Assembly: GCA_023381615.1 (NCBI GenBank)
Contig: JAMCQL010000065.1
Location: 56,531-120,530, forward strand
Length of the DNA stretch: 64,000 nt
Reading direction: 5' to 3'
Origin: Bacteroidota bacterium
GTDB lineage: Bacteria > Bacteroidota > Ignavibacteria > Kryptoniales > JAKASW01
The notes beneath the pieces were generated by a model, which searched no databases, had not been told where the DNA came from, and worked only from the letters and a program-made list of their open reading frames with translations. Position 1 is the first letter of the stretch; each line of letters begins with the position of its first letter. Of this stretch, positions 7,121-22,028 are shown piece after piece. The translations under genes were made by a program, and so were the position numbers.

Positions 7121-7924
7121 TTGAAGAAAACACTTTTCGTACTATCACTCAGTTTACTGATCGCTGCATGTCAAAAGGCTGATAATGTCATAATCGACAG
7201 CTCGCAGCCAATCAACGTGCAACTGACATACTTTGACAAAGACAGCATCGACATTGCCCGGTATATCAGCAATACTTCAACAAAACCAACGATTAGCGAC
7301 AGCTTTCAAGTGGTCTTAAGCTCAACACAGAATTTTGCATATCTTGATGTGAAAGTAGAAAACGATTCCGGCATGACCTTGAATGATGTTTCGTATTCTA
7401 CTGCCGCGGGGCGCTTAGTATCAGGAACGATTACGACAGCCTTTTCAAATGTTTACGTCGGCGATATTACCTATACCTTTACTGCATACAACAAACAGGC
7501 TTCACCGGGAGACTTCGCGATAAAGTTGGTGCGGCTTTTCAATTCAAAGAACCAGGCACCCGTTATAGACAGCGTATCGGTGCCTGACTCCGTACAGATA
7601 GATCCAACATCCAATGTTGTCTTTAATCTTTATGCGTTCGTCCACGATGCGGCGGGCCTGAGCAATATTGCAAAAGTATATTTTAACACGACCAAGCCTG
7701 ATGGGACCCCATCTTCCGGAAATCCCTTCATGATGTATGATGATGGTGGTGCAAGCGGCGCCCCCGGTGATGACGACGCGGTCGCAAATAACGGTACCTA
7801 CACTCTGGCAATCCAACTTCCGCCAGGCACAGCGATTGGAACCTATGGGTTCACATTCTATGCAGTTGACCGCAGCGGCCTCTCAAGCACACCGATCTCA
7901 CGCAATATTAAGGTATATAAATGA
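7121..7924 (+). CDS. Predicted lipoprotein with Ig-like/choice-of-anchor-type region
   Basis: The 267-residue product starts at a TTG and has a type II signal peptide with lipobox LIAAC, so the mature protein should be lipidated at about Cys17. The rest is beta-rich: a central segment beginning NQAPVIDSVSVPDSV resembles Ig-like repeats, and a C-terminal segment contains DDGGASGAPGDDDAVANNG, an acidic calcium-binding-like loop. I do not recognise a characterised orthologue. Its stop overlaps the next gene's ATG by 4 bp, linking it to the secreted propeller protein; it could be a surface partner or anchor for that protein, which is inference. Confidence 0.7.
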   Translation: MKKTLFVLSLSLLIAACQKADNVIIDSSQPINVQLTYFDKDSIDIARYISNTSTKPTISDSFQVVLSSTQNFAYLDVKVENDSGMTLNDVSYSTAAGRLVSGTITTAFSNVYVGDITYTFTAYNKQASPGDFAIKLVRLFNSKNQAPVIDSVSVPDSVQIDPTSNVVFNLYAFVHDAAGLSNIAKVYFNTTKPDGTPSSGNPFMMYDDGGASGAPGDDDAVANNGTYTLAIQLPPGTAIGTYGFTFYAVDRSGLSSTPISRNIKVYK

Positions 7925-9450
7925 AATCAACTCTCGCTCTTGCAATTGCCTTTCTCGTCACCAGCGCCAATGCGCAATTTCTCAAACAGACTTACAAACT
8001 GGATGGACTGCCCTCACAGCCTTCAAGTAATTCAATCAGTCAAATATTGATAGTGAACGGAGAAGTCTATATCGGAACTGACAAGGGATTGAACATGACC
8101 AACGGCGGCGGACTCGCTCTTCAAACGAACATCGGGACCAATGGCCCAACAGGTGTAAGTGTAAATGCAATCGCCGTCAAAGGAGATACAATAGTTGCGG
8201 CAGTTTCGACCACAATGCAGCAAAGTGGAACAACCTACCCTGTGGGCAAAGGGCTCTATGCTTCAACTGATGACGGAACAACGTGGACTCAGGAGCCGCA
8301 AAGCCTTGACTCACTCGCTGATTCAACTGTCACTTTCGGAAATAACGTCCTGACTGCACTTCCCGTTACGACAGACGTTAACAACATTTCGTACTCGCTT
8401 GCTTTTTATAAAGGTTATCTCTACGCCGCCAATTTTGCAGGCGGATTGAGAAGAAGCGCCGATCTCGGCAAAACATGGCAAAGAGTTGTTCTGCCACCTG
8501 ACTATCTCAACTACATAACCGAAGACAGCAGCTATACTTTCCAATTGTCTCCTGTCGCCGGCGCCCTCACCTCGGAAAGCAATCTGAATCACAGAGTCTT
8601 CTCCGTCTATTCGGATGGCGACAGTGCATTGTACGTCGGCACAGCGGACGGAATAAACAAGACCACCGACAATGGCTATTCCTGGTATAAGTTCACTCAC
8701 CAAAATCAGTCAAGTCCAATATCGGGAAATTTCGTCGTCTCGATAACTGCTCAAGACTATGGCACTGAACACAACATCTGGGCGGCGACAGTGAATGCAA
8801 ACGATCCAACCGAAATGCCGGCTTTGAGTTACACGACTGACGGCGGTGCAAGCTGGCATTACATCCTTGCAGGGCACTTCTTTCACAGTGTCGCATTTCA
8901 GGGAAACATCGTGTATGGTGCGTCTGATGACGGGCTTTTCAGAACTTCAGACCTGGGACGCTCTGCCCAAGTGATTACCAACATCTTTGACCCAACAACA
9001 AGACAGTCGATTTTATCCCAAGCTTTTTATGCGGTTGCAACGAACGGAGATTCGATATGGGTCGGATCAGGCGATGGCCTCGCTATGGGAATCGATAACG
9101 GGACAGGATTTGATTTGAGTCAGTGGCATGTTTTCAGAGCATTCGCCAGCGTTGCCGCCACAAATTCGACGTACTTTTATCCGAATCCATTTTCCCCGCA
9201 GCTCGATGTTGGTAGAATACATTATAATGTCAAGACTCCGAACAGCACGGTAACGGTCAGGATCTACGACTTTGCAATGCACATCATTTACACTTTGACG
9301 CAGAACGCGGCGCGCAGCGCAGGCGAACAGGATGAAGTTTGGAACGGCATGGACTCAACCGGAAAGACGGTCGACAACGGAGTCTATTTCTACAGTGTAG
9401 TCATAAATAACCAAGGCCCGATCTGGGGAAAAATACTGGTGGTGAGATGA
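7921..9450 (+). CDS. Secreted BNR/Asp-box propeller with FlgD-like type IX sorting domain
   Basis: The 509-residue protein has a Sec signal peptide ending near ANAQF. Asp-box/BNR-type motifs recur (STDDGTTWT, TTDNGYSWYKF, TTDGGASWHYI), predicting a beta-propeller of the sialidase/Ycf48-like type. The last 95 residues, beginning YFYPNPFSPQ and ending with GVYFYSVVINNQG..GKILVVR, match FlgD-Ig-like/T9SS type A C-terminal domains that target proteins to the type IX system. No catalytic residues are evident. It overlaps the lipoprotein gene before it and the PorV-like gene after it by 4 bp each, so cargo and outer-membrane shuttle are encoded together. Confidence 0.8.
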   Translation: MKSTLALAIAFLVTSANAQFLKQTYKLDGLPSQPSSNSISQILIVNGEVYIGTDKGLNMTNGGGLALQTNIGTNGPTGVSVNAIAVKGDTIVAAVSTTMQQSGTTYPVGKGLYASTDDGTTWTQEPQSLDSLADSTVTFGNNVLTALPVTTDVNNISYSLAFYKGYLYAANFAGGLRRSADLGKTWQRVVLPPDYLNYITEDSSYTFQLSPVAGALTSESNLNHRVFSVYSDGDSALYVGTADGINKTTDNGYSWYKFTHQNQSSPISGNFVVSITAQDYGTEHNIWAATVNANDPTEMPALSYTTDGGASWHYILAGHFFHSVAFQGNIVYGASDDGLFRTSDLGRSAQVITNIFDPTTRQSILSQAFYAVATNGDSIWVGSGDGLAMGIDNGTGFDLSQWHVFRAFASVAATNSTYFYPNPFSPQLDVGRIHYNVKTPNSTVTVRIYDFAMHIIYTLTQNAARSAGEQDEVWNGMDSTGKTVDNGVYFYSVVINNQGPIWGKILVVR

Positions 9451-10376
9451 AAACTTTCTCTTTATTGCTGATGCTCTGCTCTGTCTCTTTTGCTCAGAGT
9501 TATCCCGGCAGCTTTGCACGGATCGGACTGAATGCAAAAGGAATGTCACTCGGAAATTCGTTGTCGGCGGTGACAACAGGCAATGTCTACAGTTTTTATA
9601 ATCCTGCACTTGCGTCGTTCCAGGACGGCGGGAGTGTTTCCGCATCTGTCGCCCTTTTATCATTGGACAGGCAGTTGAACGTTTTGACATACACCCAAGG
9701 CGTTAAACCAACTGCCGGTATATCTTTGGGAATAATAAACGCCACAGTCTCCAACATCGACGGCAGAGACAACGACGGCGTGCACACGACAAATCTCTCG
9801 ACAAGCGAAAACTTGTTCTACTTCAGTTTCTCAAACAGGTTCATGGAAAAGCTATCTCTTGGCGTGAGTCTAAAAATGTACTACTACAAACTTTATTCAA
9901 GCCTGACTTCCACTTCCATCGGTTTTGATTTTGGCGGGGTCTATCAACTCTCAAATTCTTTTTCTATTGGTGTTGCAGCAACTGACATTGGTGAAAGCTA
10001 CCATTGGGATTCTTCAAAGCTATATGGAACCGACGGGTCGAATTTCTCAACTCCATTCCCGCATGTTTTCCGAATTGGCGCCGCTTATAATTTGCCGCAG
10101 TACGATCTGTCTGTTTCAGCTCAGTACGATATTGCACCGGCGCCTCTCAGCGCGCTCAGGGCTGGCATCGAGTTCACTCCGCTCGACGTCCTTGCGCTCC
10201 GGGCAGGACTCTCCGCCGGAAATGAGCAATATGTCGGGACCAAAGTTACTCCATCGTTCGGTTTCGGAGCAAAACTTGCCTTCCTCGACTTCACGCCCGA
10301 AATCAACTATGCTTATGTCTTCGAACCGTTCACCCCTTACGGCATACAAACTTTGACATTAATTTTTGGGTTTTGA
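9447..10376 (+). CDS. PorV/PorQ-family (UPF0164-like) outer-membrane beta-barrel protein
   Basis: The 309-residue protein has a signal peptide (cleavage likely after SFAQS) and the PorV/PorQ N-terminal signature with ARIGLNAKGMSLGNSLSAVT and a YNPALAS motif. The rest is alternating amphipathic strands, ending in a terminal aromatic residue (LTLIFGF) as expected for a beta-barrel. PorV-type proteins shuttle T9SS cargo from the translocon to the attachment complex in Bacteroidota. It sits directly downstream of a T9SS-type cargo gene, supporting that role, and is followed by a second paralogue. Which cargo each paralogue serves cannot be told. Confidence 0.8.
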   Translation: MKTFSLLLMLCSVSFAQSYPGSFARIGLNAKGMSLGNSLSAVTTGNVYSFYNPALASFQDGGSVSASVALLSLDRQLNVLTYTQGVKPTAGISLGIINATVSNIDGRDNDGVHTTNLSTSENLFYFSFSNRFMEKLSLGVSLKMYYYKLYSSLTSTSIGFDFGGVYQLSNSFSIGVAATDIGESYHWDSSKLYGTDGSNFSTPFPHVFRIGAAYNLPQYDLSVSAQYDIAPAPLSALRAGIEFTPLDVLALRAGLSAGNEQYVGTKVTPSFGFGAKLAFLDFTPEINYAYVFEPFTPYGIQTLTLIFGF

Positions 10377-11287
10377 CTTCCATGAAATATCTAAATTCGA
10401 TTTTCGCTTTTCTGATACTTGCGTCTTCGACGGCTTTCTCCCAAGCTGGCAGTGCAGGTTTTCAGATTCTGAGACTTGGTTATTCCGCACGCGATCTTTC
10501 GCTCGCTAACTCCGCCGATGCAATCACAAAAGAGCCAATAGCGGTGTTCATTAATCCAGCTGGACTTGCTTCGGATGAAAGCGAGAATGGCATCGGCTTA
10601 GACTTCATGCTGACACACAGAACTTACATTGCAGGAACGACCATCGATTTATTTGGAACGCGTTTCGAGAGCGGGGGCATTTCTTTCGGCACAAGTCTGC
10701 TTCTTTCAAGTGTTCCGGATATTGAAGTCAGGACTGTCCCCGGCGACCCACAAGCGACATTTTCCGCCAAAGATTTCGTGTTTGCCGCTGGAGTCGCGCG
10801 CAAATTCGACAAAATGGACATCGGCGTTTCAGCAACGTATCTGTATGAGAAACTTTTCGTCTACGAATCGCAGGGATTTGCTTTCAATGGCGGAGTAAAG
10901 TATTCACCTGCGCAGAATATTGAGTTGGGACTTTCCGCAGGAAATTTCGGATCAACGACGGCAATGCTCTCGCAGACTATCGCTCTTCCAATCTTCCTGC
11001 GCGTCGGAGGAAGCTACACTAAGACTTTAGACGATAACTTCTCTGTAACCGGTTTCCTCGGCGCTGCAACGTACAAGTCCGGCGGCATCACACCGAGCGT
11101 TGGAGCGGAATTCAACTATCAGAATATACTCAAACTCAGAGCGGGCTACGCTTCGGGCAGCGACATAACAGGATTTTCTTTTGGAGCCGGCGTGAACTAC
11201 AATTTCTTAAGATTCGATTACTCTTACGTCCCGATGAAACTCGATTTCGGCAATAGCCAAACGTTTACATTGTCATTCATTCTCTAA
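10373..11287 (+). CDS. PorV/PorQ-family outer-membrane protein, second paralogue
   Basis: The 304-residue protein is a paralogue of the gene before it, with the same architecture: signal peptide, GFQILRLGYSARDLSLANSA signature, INPAGLAS motif and a barrel ending LSFIL. The tracked TTG start overlaps the previous stop by 4 bp, matching the overlap style of this operon; an ATG at 10382 would remove three residues and give an equally good signal peptide. Two adjacent PorV-like proteins may handle different cargos or form a pair in the outer membrane, which is inference. Confidence 0.8.
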   Translation: MTSMKYLNSIFAFLILASSTAFSQAGSAGFQILRLGYSARDLSLANSADAITKEPIAVFINPAGLASDESENGIGLDFMLTHRTYIAGTTIDLFGTRFESGGISFGTSLLLSSVPDIEVRTVPGDPQATFSAKDFVFAAGVARKFDKMDIGVSATYLYEKLFVYESQGFAFNGGVKYSPAQNIELGLSAGNFGSTTAMLSQTIALPIFLRVGGSYTKTLDDNFSVTGFLGAATYKSGGITPSVGAEFNYQNILKLRAGYASGSDITGFSFGAGVNYNFLRFDYSYVPMKLDFGNSQTFTLSFIL

Positions 11288-16555: not shown

Positions 16556-17668
16556 CTAAAACTGCATCTCACAGACGACTCCGAACAAATCATGATAAAT
16601 GCCCGAGTTCCACTCCGGATTTTTTGCGTACGAAAGTTCAAGCGACATTATCGGCAAGTTGGGCAAAACAAGTTTAGTCGGGAATCGTAACGAGAATCCG
16701 TAAGAAAAACCCGTCCCCATCTGTGAGACCTGAAGATTATTGGACTGGTCAACGACTGTAACCTTTGGAGTTTTCAGGGTGTAACCAACACGCACTGCAA
16801 GCACACCCAGCGCAGTTGTCTCCAGGCCAAGTCTGTATTGATCTTTTTGTGCGATAAAACTATCAAGTGGATTTGAGTTACTTAACAAATGAGAGTAATC
16901 AGCAACAGCAGTCAATTTAAATAATTCGAAATTGGCAATCTGGTAATTAGAAGCAAAAGTGTATGCGACCCCAACACTAAAGAGCTGAGGAATTTTTACG
17001 TCCGGATTTGAAGAAACTAATGGATATACACCACTCATCGTGGTACTTGAAAGCACATTGGAAAACGACGTCCCGGCGGAGAAGATGGCTCTAAAGAACA
17101 TGTTATCGGCAAGCACCGTCCTGTTCGCGACACCCACATCAAAAGTAAATTTGTTCATTCTTGACTGGGTTAGGTAATTAGCAAATGGAACCGGTGATAT
17201 GACCACCACTAACCTTTCGAAAGTCAAATACTTGCCAGTTATGCCAAATGAAAAACCAAACGGCAACTGCACCCCAAATCCGAGGGCTGAAATTGTCGTT
17301 CGCCATCCTCCTAATTGAAAATTATTGTAACTGACTCCAACTCCGAGCGGTCCGGCAGGAAATGCGGCTGACAAATCCCACGTCTGCAAAATTCCGTTTG
17401 CCAAGAACCGCGATGAAGAATCCGGGGAGAGGGGTTGGCTGATATTGCGGGAAAAATACTCAAAGTCAGATCCTACGTAGACGTTTTGCACAAAAGCAAG
17501 TCGAGCAGGATTCAACAAAACAGCGTGTGCATAATCTGGATCAGCAACATAAGCAGACATTCCCGCCGCTCTATTCGGCAGGATATATTCGCCGTCGAGA
17601 AACAGACTCTGCGATAATGCCGACTTTGCAGCGACGAAGATCAACAAGAATGCTATTTTATTTCTCAG
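16556..17668 (-). CDS. PorV/PorQ-like outer-membrane protein, probable CTG start
   Basis: This predicted beta-barrel has the PorV/UPF0164-style N-terminus (LPNRAAGMSAYVADPDYAHA, LNPARLAF). The ORF track starts at a TTG (17647), which leaves no basic n-region for the signal peptide. Extending to a CTG at 17666-17668 gives MRNKIAFLLIFVAAKSAL, a complete signal peptide. That CTG has GGAGG 6 nt upstream and overlaps the preceding stop as CTGA, mirroring the ATGA junctions elsewhere in the window. It should be coupled to the Omp85 fusion gene. It could assist transport or assembly of surface proteins. Confidence 0.75.
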   Translation of the reverse strand: MRNKIAFLLIFVAAKSALSQSLFLDGEYILPNRAAGMSAYVADPDYAHAVLLNPARLAFVQNVYVGSDFEYFSRNISQPLSPDSSSRFLANGILQTWDLSAAFPAGPLGVGVSYNNFQLGGWRTTISALGFGVQLPFGFSFGITGKYLTFERLVVVISPVPFANYLTQSRMNKFTFDVGVANRTVLADNMFFRAIFSAGTSFSNVLSSTTMSGVYPLVSSNPDVKIPQLFSVGVAYTFASNYQIANFELFKLTAVADYSHLLSNSNPLDSFIAQKDQYRLGLETTALGVLAVRVGYTLKTPKVTVVDQSNNLQVSQMGTGFSYGFSLRFPTKLVLPNLPIMSLELSYAKNPEWNSGIYHDLFGVVCEMQF

Positions 17669-20600
17669 AAGTCGCCTCCGAGCGAGAAGTAGAATTTCGG
17701 ATAATGAAAGCCCTCGATATTATACTGCCACGCATAATCAAGCCTCAGTACAAAATACAAAAATGGGACCCTCGCTCCAAAGCCGGAACCGACCAGTAAA
17801 TCCTGTGTTACTGTCTGGCCAGAAGCGTCTCTTCTGAAAGGCTTGTACTGAGAAACTGAAGTAAACGCACTTCCCGCATCGACAAAAATTACTCCTTCAA
17901 TATTAGAAAGCAAAATCGGAATCAATCCGGGCACGAAGTACCTCACGAGCGGGAATCTCACTTCCATGTTTGTCAGGAAATATTTTGTCCCGAGCTGAGC
18001 GTTGAAGTCGTAACCACGGAGTGGAAACACGGGTGTGAGAAAAGCATAGTCCGCCACAGAGCTTATCGGAATATTTACAGTCGAATAATTCGTGTTTATC
18101 CAGTTGCTCATGCCGCCGATAAAGAATTTCTGCGGATTAGCGCCGACACTCGCCGCGCCTGCCGCCCGGAACGCAAACGTGTTCACGTCAAAGAAAGGAA
18201 GATAAGTCCTGTAATCAAACTGACCCGTCACAAATCCAAGAAAACTAGATGCGATTTTTGGCACATAAGTCAGCGTCAAATTGTATCGTGTGCCGTTCAC
18301 GGGAGCAAAATAACCTGCGAGAGTATTATCGCTCACGTAACTCATAGAACTCAAAAGAGCATTTGCAGAGGAGCCGAGATCGGCTGGGTTGTCAATATTC
18401 TGTCGCGAAATCCCTAGGTATGCAAAATTGAAATCGAGGCGATTGAATCTGTCAAAAGGTCGTGACATGGAAAGCTCGCCTATCAACGACTGGAAACGGT
18501 TGATTTCGTAATTCCCTGTCAAGTCATCGTAGAGATAGAGAAAAGCCGCCGTGTGGAGGAAACTGACTCCGTAGTTGATTTTTGATGCCAGATTCTGGTA
18601 CGAAAGCGCATAGTCGCTGTTCTTCAGGTCTATTACAAAATCGGTGTAGATGGCGATCTGATTATTCCCGAGCATGTCGCTGAAAGCCAGCTCAGTGGCA
18701 CCCTGAAAACCGTAGAGCGTGTTGAAGCCGGCTCCTCCCGCAATTATGTCAGGAGTAAAATCAATTTTGTACGGAAAAGGTATGAAATTACCAAGCGAGT
18801 CCACATTCCCTTTCAACAAGAAAGGAGAAACTTTCGGTTTGTTGTTCTCGCTTCCATATTCCGGAGCGAATACAAGATGACTGAAGTCTGAAGCAGTTGA
18901 AGCTCCATAAAGGGAAGTCAGATTTTTTGTGTTGTTAGTGCTGGTCTTCGAAGCCACTTCCCGCTTCGCGAAGAAATCTTTCACATAAGTCGTTGGGACA
19001 AGCGGCCCATTCATTTTGTGGTCGAGCGGCAAATCAATTGTGAATACGTCGTAGCCGCCGTAGTTCAAAGCAGCAAAGGCTAACTTCTGGCCGTCGCGCG
19101 AGAGAGACGGGTCTTCAATTCCATAAAGGGAATTTGTAAGCGGTACTTCTTTGTCGGTCTCAAAATTTTTGTAATAGAGATTGGAGATTCCATTCCTTGA
19201 TGAAACAAATATCAAGCCTTTGCCGTCGGGCGTCGGAAGCGGATATGAATTATCTCCGCCGTGCGGAACTGTGTTGGGAATATTCGGGAAATTAGTCCGT
19301 GTAATTCGCTCTATCTTCCCTGTCGCCACATCTATTGAAAAGATGTCAAGCGGATTTCCCGCTGCCCAGTGCGCCACATCTAGCGGATTTCCCTTCTGAT
19401 ATAAACTGTCTCCACGGTCAGAATCAAAAAATATCTTCTTCCCGTCGACAGACCAATGAGGCGCCTGGTCTGTGAAAATATCATTCGTGAGATTTCTAAC
19501 TTCATGCGTCCCTAAATTGTAAATATAGATATCGGACTGCAATGGCTTATACGCCGAGAAGGCAATTTCCTTTCCGTCCGGAGAAAAATCTATTCCGTTA
19601 ATTCCGTCAAACTGCAGATCGGGAAGTTCTTTTGTCTCGCCCGTATTAACATTTATCATGAAGATTTTATCATATTCGCCGGTTTTTGAGGCGACGGCGA
19701 CCTCCTTCCCATCCGGAGACCAGGCAATACCGGGCGTAAGCAGATGGAGTTCCTCGAAATTTGCCGTCCGGTTTCCCTTGACAAGTACGCGAATGAGTCT
19801 GCCTGTTACCGTCGACATCAAGTCGATATCAAAATACCCGGAGCGATTCGTTATGAAAGCGATCTTGTCGCCATGCGGGGAAATGACCGGAGTCGAATTG
19901 TAAAAACTGCCGTCCTTTTGATGGTCGGTCACTCTTCTCGCAAACTTGTCCAGTGACTCTCTCTCTCCAACCTCCGGGAAATAGACTTTGCGATTGTATT
20001 TCAGCCACTTCTCGGAAAGTTGATCGACGTTCAGCCCGATTGCTCGTTGAAAACCTCGGTTAACGCTGCGAGTCGCAAGAACCGCATGTACGATCTCGCC
20101 AATTTTTTCACCGCCATATCTTTCGTCAATGTAATGCCATACAGATTCGCCGCCGCGATAATCAAGATAACCATTAAGATATTCTATCGGCGGCATGTAA
20201 CCGTTCACCGTCGCATCAATTAGGAACTCATCTGAGGCCACTTCCCAGTGAGAAAGCGACTGATATTCGGCCATGCCTTCATTGAACCATGTCGGAAGCT
20301 GGAAGGTAATGTTGCGCTCGATGATAGACTGGATCGAACCGCCGTAAAACATTTCATCAAAGACAGCGTGGACGAGTTCATGGTGAGTTACATGGCGCAT
20401 CAGGCTCAGGCTTCCTTCCCACGGAAGCACAACCCTGTTCTTGTACAATTCCGTAACACCGCCCGTGCCTTCCTCTAAATATTCTTGGACAATGTTGTTC
20501 TGCTGGAAATCATTGTGGGAATTGAAGATCGCAATATTGATGCGCTTGTTAATCTGATAATGGAAGCTTGCGCTGATCGACGCAAGGGAACTTTCCGCTT

Positions 20601-20778
20601 CGACTGCGACAAACTGCGCCAGATCATATCCTCTATGTGTAAAATACACATTGAAGTGACGCGACTGGATGTATCTCCACTTAAAATCTTTGTAATGGAC
20701 TTTATTCTGGCCGAATTCCTGGGCAGAGACTGTGGAAGCAAGAACAAAAATTGTCACGAGAAACAAAAGCCTCTTCAT
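17665..20778 (-). CDS. Metalloprotease-like / TolB-type propeller / Omp85 surface-antigen fusion protein
   Basis: The 1037-residue protein begins with a signal peptide (cleavage after TVSAQ). The N-terminal third has a gluzincin-type zinc motif, HELVH at about 133-137, and a downstream FNEGMAEY, as in peptidase MA-like proteins. Residues about 290-600 hold PD40/TolB-like repeats (SPDGKEVAVASKTG, SPDGKEIAFSAYK, SVDGKKIFFDSDR, TPDGKGLIFVSS). The last ~380 residues resemble the Omp85/BamA bacterial surface antigen barrel (GGMSNWINTN). The zinc motif looks intact, but protease activity is inference. It is coupled to the PorV-like gene that follows by a 4-bp overlap. Confidence 0.8.
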   Translation of the reverse strand: MKRLLFLVTIFVLASTVSAQEFGQNKVHYKDFKWRYIQSRHFNVYFTHRGYDLAQFVAVEAESSLASISASFHYQINKRINIAIFNSHNDFQQNNIVQEYLEEGTGGVTELYKNRVVLPWEGSLSLMRHVTHHELVHAVFDEMFYGGSIQSIIERNITFQLPTWFNEGMAEYQSLSHWEVASDEFLIDATVNGYMPPIEYLNGYLDYRGGESVWHYIDERYGGEKIGEIVHAVLATRSVNRGFQRAIGLNVDQLSEKWLKYNRKVYFPEVGERESLDKFARRVTDHQKDGSFYNSTPVISPHGDKIAFITNRSGYFDIDLMSTVTGRLIRVLVKGNRTANFEELHLLTPGIAWSPDGKEVAVASKTGEYDKIFMINVNTGETKELPDLQFDGINGIDFSPDGKEIAFSAYKPLQSDIYIYNLGTHEVRNLTNDIFTDQAPHWSVDGKKIFFDSDRGDSLYQKGNPLDVAHWAAGNPLDIFSIDVATGKIERITRTNFPNIPNTVPHGGDNSYPLPTPDGKGLIFVSSRNGISNLYYKNFETDKEVPLTNSLYGIEDPSLSRDGQKLAFAALNYGGYDVFTIDLPLDHKMNGPLVPTTYVKDFFAKREVASKTSTNNTKNLTSLYGASTASDFSHLVFAPEYGSENNKPKVSPFLLKGNVDSLGNFIPFPYKIDFTPDIIAGGAGFNTLYGFQGATELAFSDMLGNNQIAIYTDFVIDLKNSDYALSYQNLASKINYGVSFLHTAAFLYLYDDLTGNYEINRFQSLIGELSMSRPFDRFNRLDFNFAYLGISRQNIDNPADLGSSANALLSSMSYVSDNTLAGYFAPVNGTRYNLTLTYVPKIASSFLGFVTGQFDYRTYLPFFDVNTFAFRAAGAASVGANPQKFFIGGMSNWINTNYSTVNIPISSVADYAFLTPVFPLRGYDFNAQLGTKYFLTNMEVRFPLVRYFVPGLIPILLSNIEGVIFVDAGSAFTSVSQYKPFRRDASGQTVTQDLLVGSGFGARVPFLYFVLRLDYAWQYNIEGFHYPKFYFSLGGDF

Positions 20779-21125: not shown

Positions 21126-21860
21126 TCACGGGGCAAGCGTCATATGATTCACAACGTCCCTGACTCCAGTAGCAAGCGATGCATCTTCAAGCGCAGAATC
21201 CATCTCGCCAAAATCTTTTACCTGCCCCGTCAAAGTCACCACACCATCTTTCACGTCAATCATTATATTGCTATGAACAAGCCTGTCAAGCTTGAAAAAG
21301 TGCTCAATATCTGCCTTTATCTGACTATCGGAGCGCGGCTTAGCAGGAACAACCGTCAAGTCATTCTCGACGTTGCGTGCTCCGTACGTATTTTCCGCCA
21401 CACCTTGAGCGAGCTGCTTTTGAAGATAAGATGAAACCTTCCCAGTCAGAGTCACTTCTCCATTTTTCACTTTTACGACAACTGCGGCGTTTTGAAGTTC
21501 AGCATTCCGCTTGATCGCATTTCGCACATCATCCAGGATCAAGTCGTCTCCTCTTACGCCGGGAACGACTTTCAAATTATTCACTATATCCTTAACACCT
21601 GCCACTTTTTTAACATCGGCAACGACACGATGCAGTTCACGAAAATTAGTGACGGTTCCATTGAGCTTTACCGATCCGCCATTTACGTCGGCGGTTATAG
21701 CTACATCCGGTAGTTGTGAATCCAGAAGCAAGAAGCTTTCCACTTGTGATTTAATTCTGTCGTCTGGAATGTGTTTCTCGAAAACGGCGCTTTCTTTAGC
21801 GCATCCGATCAATAAAATTGGAAAAAGCAAAAGGATCGATTTGATTATTAAAGAACGCAT
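21126..21860 (-). CDS. Lipoprotein with three BON domains
   Basis: The product has a lipoprotein signal (lipobox LLIGC) and three consecutive BON domains, each ending in a GV-D-IVNN or related VV-NHM-type motif, as in OsmY/BON-family periplasmic proteins thought to bind membranes. The tracked start (21872) is probably wrong: an ATG at 21860 sits 6 nt after GGAGG and yields MRSLIIKSILLLFP. It likely acts at the periplasmic face of a membrane in envelope stress. It stands alone, with repeats upstream of the neighbouring fusion gene and the CNNM gene on its other side. Confidence 0.85.
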   Translation of the reverse strand: MRSLIIKSILLLFPILLIGCAKESAVFEKHIPDDRIKSQVESFLLLDSQLPDVAITADVNGGSVKLNGTVTNFRELHRVVADVKKVAGVKDIVNNLKVVPGVRGDDLILDDVRNAIKRNAELQNAAVVVKVKNGEVTLTGKVSSYLQKQLAQGVAENTYGARNVENDLTVVPAKPRSDSQIKADIEHFFKLDRLVHSNIMIDVKDGVVTLTGQVKDFGEMDSALEDASLATGVRDVVNHMTLAP

Positions 21861-22028
21861 AATTTCCTCCATCTTTTTTTAGATCCGCTTCCCTTTGGAA
21901 GACCAATGAAACAATTCAGATACTTTAACAGAAGATAAATCAATTCAGTTTCTGCAAAATTCAATTAAGTTAGACGCACACGGCAATGAAAAGTAACCGT
22001 GAAATTACACCACAATATTAATTTTCTT

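What the first reader, a model, noticed from the sequence alone, without database searches (positions are those of the whole stretch)
16556..20778. Zinc-protease motif, TolB-like propeller and Omp85 barrel in one protein, coupled to a PorV-like protein
The 1037-residue protein joins HELVH...NEGMAEY, PD40 repeats and a BamA-type C-terminal barrel. It is translationally coupled to a PorV/PorQ-like protein. The pair could form an outer-membrane processing or export device.
Basis: partly seen in the sequence, partly recalled or inferred. Interest (0 to 1): 0.55.

Follow-up and report, generated by a model that had tools for sequence, protein, structure and literature searches.

The report
Outer-membrane protease, propeller and barrel fusion
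This gene encodes one of a widespread but uncharacterised family of bacterial outer-membrane proteins that join a zinc-protease domain, a propeller and an Omp85 barrel; close relatives are usually encoded next to TamB, an outer-membrane-building protein, while this copy is a genus-specific duplicate paired with a PorV-like barrel protein.

Summary
The 1037-residue protein (17665-20778, minus strand) has a signal peptide, a Peptidase_MA_2-like gluzincin domain, a TolB-like propeller and a 16-stranded Omp85 barrel with no POTRA domain. The AlphaFold model is good (pLDDT 85.6, pTM 0.83), and Foldseek finds TolB, TamA and BamA. The protein is not unique: it belongs to the "WD40-Omp85" subfamily named in 2014, found in 41 of 41 related genomes and 99 of 148 in the phylum. 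That paper's main text mentions no zinc-protease domain for it. New here: in the class, the gene usually sits in a tamB-rnr-WD40-Omp85 cluster (41 of 57 testable loci). The window copy is a faster-evolving, genus-restricted duplicate that lost the tamB linkage and is followed by a divergent PorV/PorQ-family gene. One genus member keeps the PorV-like gene without this Omp85, so the pair is not obligate and an export device is not supported. Most likely it is a periplasm-facing, outer-membrane-anchored peptidase and assembly or quality-control factor. Proteolysis, client and TamB contact are inferred.

The parts
17665..20778 (-). Zinc-peptidase / TolB-like propeller / Omp85 barrel protein, 1037 aa
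20722..20778 (-). Sec signal peptide, residues about 1-19 (no lipobox cysteine); cleavage before QEFGQNKV inferred from sequence
   Evidence: inference
19969..20676 (-). Gluzincin-like peptidase domain (Peptidase_MA_2-like), residues about 35-270
20368..20382 (-). HELVH, residues 133-137: two presumed zinc ligands and catalytic Glu; invariant in 79 of 79
20275..20283 (-). NEG, residues 166-168; E167 is the presumed third zinc ligand, invariant in 79 of 79
19018..19923 (-). TolB-like beta-propeller (PD40 repeats), residues 286-587
18799..18990 (-). Helix and disordered linker between propeller and barrel, residues about 597-660; pLDDT below 50 at 610-651; no POTRA domain
17668..18756 (-). 16-stranded Omp85 barrel, residues 675-1037
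18010..18021 (-). LRGY, residues 920-923: Omp85 loop-6 RG motif
17872..17886 (-). FVDAG, residues 965-969: Omp85 FxDxG motif
16556..17668 (-). Divergent PorV/PorQ-family outer-membrane protein, 370 aa if started at CTG 17668 (363 aa from TTG 17647)
17665..17679 (-). Junction: GGAGG (17679-17675) inside the last Omp85 codons, then CTGA overlap of the proposed CTG start (17668-17666) with the TGA stop (17667-17665)

Best explanation
The 1037-aa protein is a WD40-Omp85 protein. Its 16-stranded barrel sits in the outer membrane, and its N-terminal zinc peptidase and TolB-like propeller most likely hang in the periplasm. The propeller would hold clients or partner proteins at the barrel while the peptidase trims or removes faulty outer-membrane proteins, in the manner of a membrane-fused BepA-like and BamB-like factor. 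The ancestral family probably works in the TamB pathway, since its gene is usually clustered with tamB in this class. The window copy is a lineage-specific, fast-evolving duplicate that is no longer at the tamB locus and is now probably co-expressed with a PorV-like barrel protein, which is either its client or a co-regulated neighbour. Shown: domains, predicted fold, motif conservation, duplication, gene linkages. Inferred: topology, proteolysis, TamB partnership, client.
For: Fold and domains. Zinc ligands invariant in 79 aligned members, present in L047 and L069 and in 30 of 30 class and phylum members; the search patterns used to find the 80 named relatives did not contain HEXXH. Family in 41 of 41 relatives and 99 of 148 phylum genomes. 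A tamB-like gene and rnr lie upstream in 41 of 57 testable non-genus loci, mostly with gaps or overlaps of a few tens of bases. The neighbour is TamB/AsmA-like (NF047952 E=5e-18, AsmA, DUF748) and homologous to the Pfam TamB gene of the window genome; in the window genome tamB sits on another contig but keeps the same hldE-type neighbours. Duplication. Periplasmic placement follows Omp85 precedent, including PlpD, whose enzyme domain was shown to stay periplasmic (PMC11116518).
Against: No catalytic, topological or interaction evidence. The genomes also encode a POTRA-type TamL/BamA-like Omp85 of about 690 aa that could be the real TamB partner. In the window genus tamB and WD40-Omp85 are unlinked. 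Peptidase_MA_2 is below its curated cut-off in the window protein itself. The peptidase domain was not matched separately to a solved metalloprotease.
Confidence: 0.5

Rival explanations
1. Two-part outer-membrane processing or export device: the Omp85 protein and the PorV-like protein form an obligate complex that exports or processes substrates.
For: Adjacent, overlapping genes in all genus members that hold the window-type copy; the relationship to the PorV/PorQ family recalls T9SS shuttle proteins.
Against: G007 keeps the PorV-like gene without the Omp85; the family elsewhere has no PorV-like neighbour of this kind; the PorV-like protein is below the PorV family cut-off and the genome has 13 better PorV-family members plus SprA.
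Confidence: 0.15
2. Enzymatic autotransporter (type Vd-like, as once proposed for PlpD): the barrel exports the peptidase-propeller portion to the surface.
For: Enzyme domain N-terminal to an Omp85 barrel, as in PlpD.
Against: PlpD's own enzyme domain was shown to stay periplasmic (PMC11116518); no POTRA domain; characterised Omp85 N-termini are periplasmic.
Confidence: 0.1
3. The peptidase domain is not proteolytic and serves only as a structural or binding domain.
For: No activity data; some members of peptidase families have lost activity (general knowledge).
Against: The zinc-site residues are conserved in more than 100 sequences, including the fast-evolving window clade.
Confidence: 0.12
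4. The PorV-like gene is only a passenger in the transcription unit, with no functional tie to the Omp85 protein. This is compatible with the main explanation of the Omp85 protein itself.
For: G007 carries it alone, overlapping the upstream CNNM/CorC gene by ATGA instead.
Against: Conserved adjacency wherever the window-type copy is present in the genus.
Confidence: 0.35

Closest known systems
WD40-Omp85 subfamily of the Omp85/TpsB superfamily (Heinz and Lithgow 2014, PMC4104836)
   Same: N-terminal TolB-like propeller, Omp85 barrel, no POTRA; described there as resembling a BamA-BamB fusion
   Different: The main text describes no zinc-peptidase domain for this subfamily (its separate 'Metallo' subfamily is defined by PF00149) and no link to tamB or a PorV-like gene; supplements were not readable
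TamA / TamL with TamB (translocation and assembly module; PMC4494059, PMC12045153)
   Same: TamA is the best barrel match in the PDB; ancestral genes clustered with tamB
   Different: No POTRA, no lipobox; carries peptidase and propeller; window copy not linked to tamB
PlpD (patatin-Omp85)
   Same: Enzyme domain fused N-terminally to an Omp85 barrel
   Different: Different enzyme (metallopeptidase-like, not patatin); propeller instead of POTRA
PorV/PorQ family (type IX secretion)
   Same: The second gene's product matches the family model over most of its length
   Different: 43 bits against a cut-off of 90; genus-restricted; not the genome's best PorV candidate

Membership tests
Omp85 superfamily | 16-stranded barrel with Omp85 fold | tested here: met
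   16 strands counted in a pLDDT 85.6 model; Foldseek TamA 4.8e-12, BamA 6e-12
Omp85 superfamily | Loop-6 RG motif and FxDxG motif | tested here: met
   R921, G922, D967, G969 invariant in 79 of 79
WD40-Omp85 subfamily | N-terminal TolB-like propeller and absence of POTRA | tested here: met
   TolB TIGR02800 E=3e-37; no POTRA match; propeller directly before linker and barrel
TamA/TamL | POTRA domains (and lipobox for TamL) | tested here: not met
   No POTRA match; Sec signal peptide without lipobox cysteine
TamA/TamL | Physical partnership with TamB | not testable with these tools
   Only gene linkage of the ancestral copies
Gluzincin zinc peptidases (Peptidase_MA) | HEXXH plus downstream Glu | tested here: met
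   H133, E134, H137, E167 invariant; on two helices in the model
Gluzincin zinc peptidases (Peptidase_MA) | Curated Pfam cut-off | tested here: inconclusive
   28.3 vs 32.4 bits in the window protein; 19 of 19 members match at E<0.01, best 1.5e-16
PorV/PorQ family NF033709 | Score above curated cut-off | tested here: not met
   43 bits vs 90; 7 of 7 genus members match at E<0.01
PorV/PorQ family NF033709 | FadL-like 14-stranded barrel | tested here: inconclusive
   Model pLDDT 47.5 from 7 sequences

The most novel reading that the evidence does not exclude
In the Ignavibacteria/Kryptonia lineage the outer-membrane partner of TamB, or an obligate co-factor of the TamB pathway, is a POTRA-less Omp85 that carries its own zinc protease and TolB-like propeller; the window shows a duplicate of this machine re-dedicated to a PorV-like outer-membrane protein.
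Probability: 0.25. Interest if true: 0.75.

Novelty: new variant of a known kind. Interest (0 to 1): 0.48.

Why it matters
Omp85 proteins build bacterial outer membranes, and almost all characterised ones use POTRA domains. This family puts a conserved protease and a propeller on the barrel and is encoded beside tamB in many genomes of its class. If it acts with TamB it would add a proteolytic step to the TAM pathway and make the role of the uncharacterised WD40-Omp85 subfamily directly testable.

Tried and rejected
The PorV-like structure model was too poor to use (pLDDT 47.5), so no fold search was run on it. PDB sequence searches for the PorV-like protein gave nothing. A programmed frameshift joining the two ORFs was considered and rejected: the register between the genes differs between two clades and I saw no classical slippery site. 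A BON-domain lipoprotein upstream (21126-21872) looked like a DolP-type partner but has no homologue in any fetched locus other than the window's own. Supplementary tables of PMC4104836 could not be read (no supplement look-ups allowed), so whether they list the peptidase domain is unknown. TamB was at first missed by Pfam on truncated neighbours and found with full-length ones. Promoter and terminator scans of the locus were at chance level.

Full report
OBSERVATION. Both ORFs are present at the stated coordinates on the minus strand. The 1037-aa protein has a signal peptide, an HELVH...NEG gluzincin motif (residues 133-137, 166-168), PD40 repeats matching TolB (TIGR02800 E=3e-37), and a C-terminal stretch matching TamL (7e-9) and BamA (0.004). 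Searches of PDB sequences find TolB. An AlphaFold model from 79 sequences has pLDDT 85.6 and pTM 0.83. It shows a helical N-terminal domain with HELVH on helix 124-145 and NEG on helix 163-174, a propeller at about 286-587, a disordered linker, and 16 long strands from 675 to 1033. Foldseek against the PDB returns TolB (1e-13), TamA (4.8e-12) and F. johnsoniae BamA (6e-12).

CONSERVATION. All 41 genomes in the relatives search (own genome included) and 99 of 148 sampled phylum genomes carry the family. The 80 named relatives are mostly Ignavibacteria, Kryptonia and unclassified Bacteroidetes MAGs, and include Candidatus Chrysopegis kryptomonas, Melioribacter and Ignavibacterium. H133, E134, H137 and E167 are invariant in 79 of 79 aligned sequences; L047 and L069, left out of the alignment, also have the motif. 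Thirty class and phylum members fetched separately all have HEXXH and the downstream EG. The patterns used to find the named relatives did not include HEXXH, so this is not circular. The Omp85 residues R921, G922, D967 and G969 are equally invariant.

COPIES. The window genome has three related genes: the window copy, a 49% copy on contig C60 and a ~34% copy on C40. A tree of 66 sequences puts the window-type proteins in one clade with full support on a long stem (1.18), sister, with moderate support (SH-aLRT 89), to the second copies of the same genus (stem 0.57). This suggests a duplication within the lineage followed by faster change, with the zinc site kept.

NEIGHBOURHOOD. In non-genus loci the gene directly upstream is usually rnr (RNase R; TIGR02063 E=2e-223), and upstream of that lies a protein of about 1,250-1,500 aa with an N-terminal membrane helix. 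That protein matches NCBIfam TamB (5e-18 and 9e-17, well below the equivalog cut-off), AsmA and DUF748. Of 57 non-genus loci with at least 2.8 kb upstream, 43 have rnr, 43 have the TamB-like gene and 41 have both, mostly with short gaps. Searching with this TamB-like protein hits one gene in most genomes; in the window genome and its closest relatives it is the same gene that carries Pfam TamB (PF04357), found once per genome in the genomes tested. In G023, G027 and G029 that gene is next to the WD40-Omp85 gene by coordinates. In the window genome tamB is on another contig but keeps the same hldE-type neighbours seen in the clustered genomes, so the linkage appears to have been lost in this genus. 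These genomes also have a POTRA-type TamL/BamA-like Omp85 of about 690 aa, which is a competing candidate for the TamB partner.

PORV-LIKE GENE. The second protein matches NF033709 PorV/PorQ at 43 bits (cut-off 90), and all 7 genus members tested match at E<0.01. By sequence it is confined to the genus, 12 of 13 genomes, and sits directly behind the window-type Omp85 in every case but one. In G007 the Omp85 is absent there, and the PorV-like gene follows the CNNM/CorC gene at the same syntenic position with an ATGA overlap. The pair is thus not obligate. In none of ten orthologues is there an ATG within 45 nt of the Omp85 stop; GTG or TTG codons occur in some, mostly inside the hydrophobic core of the signal peptide. 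In the window the best candidate is CTG 17668, overlapping the Omp85 stop as CTGA, 6 nt after a GGAGG formed by the last Omp85 codons. In a second clade the register differs, and an in-frame ATG lies 56-68 nt inside the Omp85 gene. The start site is unresolved. The genome has type IX secretion markers: SprA, more than 70 T9SS C-terminal domains and 13 PorV-family proteins above the cut-off.

MECHANISM. The best-supported reading is an outer-membrane-anchored, periplasm-facing metallopeptidase with a client- or partner-binding propeller. Placement in the periplasm rests on Omp85 precedent, most directly PlpD, whose enzyme domain was shown to stay periplasmic (PMC11116518). By analogy it could work like BepA (a periplasmic zinc protease that edits outer-membrane proteins; from general knowledge) fused to a BamB-like platform. 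The tamB cluster suggests that the ancestral role lies in the TamB pathway. The window duplicate would serve a narrower role, perhaps for the PorV-like protein. Catalysis, topology, TamB contact and client are all inferred.

KNOWN OR NEW. Heinz and Lithgow (PMC4104836) named a WD40-Omp85 subfamily, likened it to a BamA-BamB fusion and left its function open. A 2024 paper still lists it among the Omp85 subfamilies that are not well characterised. Full-text searches found no study of the peptidase domain or the tamB linkage, though the library lacks most subscription journals and the 2014 supplements were not readable. The protein is therefore a member of a known subfamily. The peptidase domain, the tamB-rnr linkage and the duplicate with its PorV-like neighbour appear unreported.

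Noticed in passing
window 17662-17679 and orthologous junctions in L001-L010: The PorV-like gene has no ATG within 45 nt of the Omp85 stop in ten orthologues, and its register relative to that stop differs between two clades, suggesting CTG or other non-standard starts, or a long overlap, with coupled translation.
   Followed up: partly
window 7921-11287 (+): A BNR-repeat protein with a T9SS-type C-terminal domain is followed by two overlapping PorV/PorQ-family genes (9447-10376 and 10373-11287), both above the family cut-off.
   Followed up: partly
window 21126-21872 (-): Lipoprotein with three BON domains (DolP/OsmY type) just upstream of the Omp85 gene; no homologue found in any fetched locus other than the window's own.
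   Followed up: yes
L154 and L155, upstream of the Omp85 gene: Conserved order of lpx-type genes, hldE-type genes, tamB, rnr and WD40-Omp85, placing LPS-precursor synthesis, TamB and RNase R together.
   Followed up: partly
L150:4638-7676 (-), window genome contig C40: A third, ~34% identical copy of 1013 aa keeps HELIH...SEG and a C-terminal DF but lacks the RG[YFH] motif searched for; it may be a separate subfamily.
   Followed up: partly
L151 (G007:C21): The PorV-like gene is present without the Omp85 gene and overlaps the CNNM/CorC gene by ATGA.
   Followed up: yes
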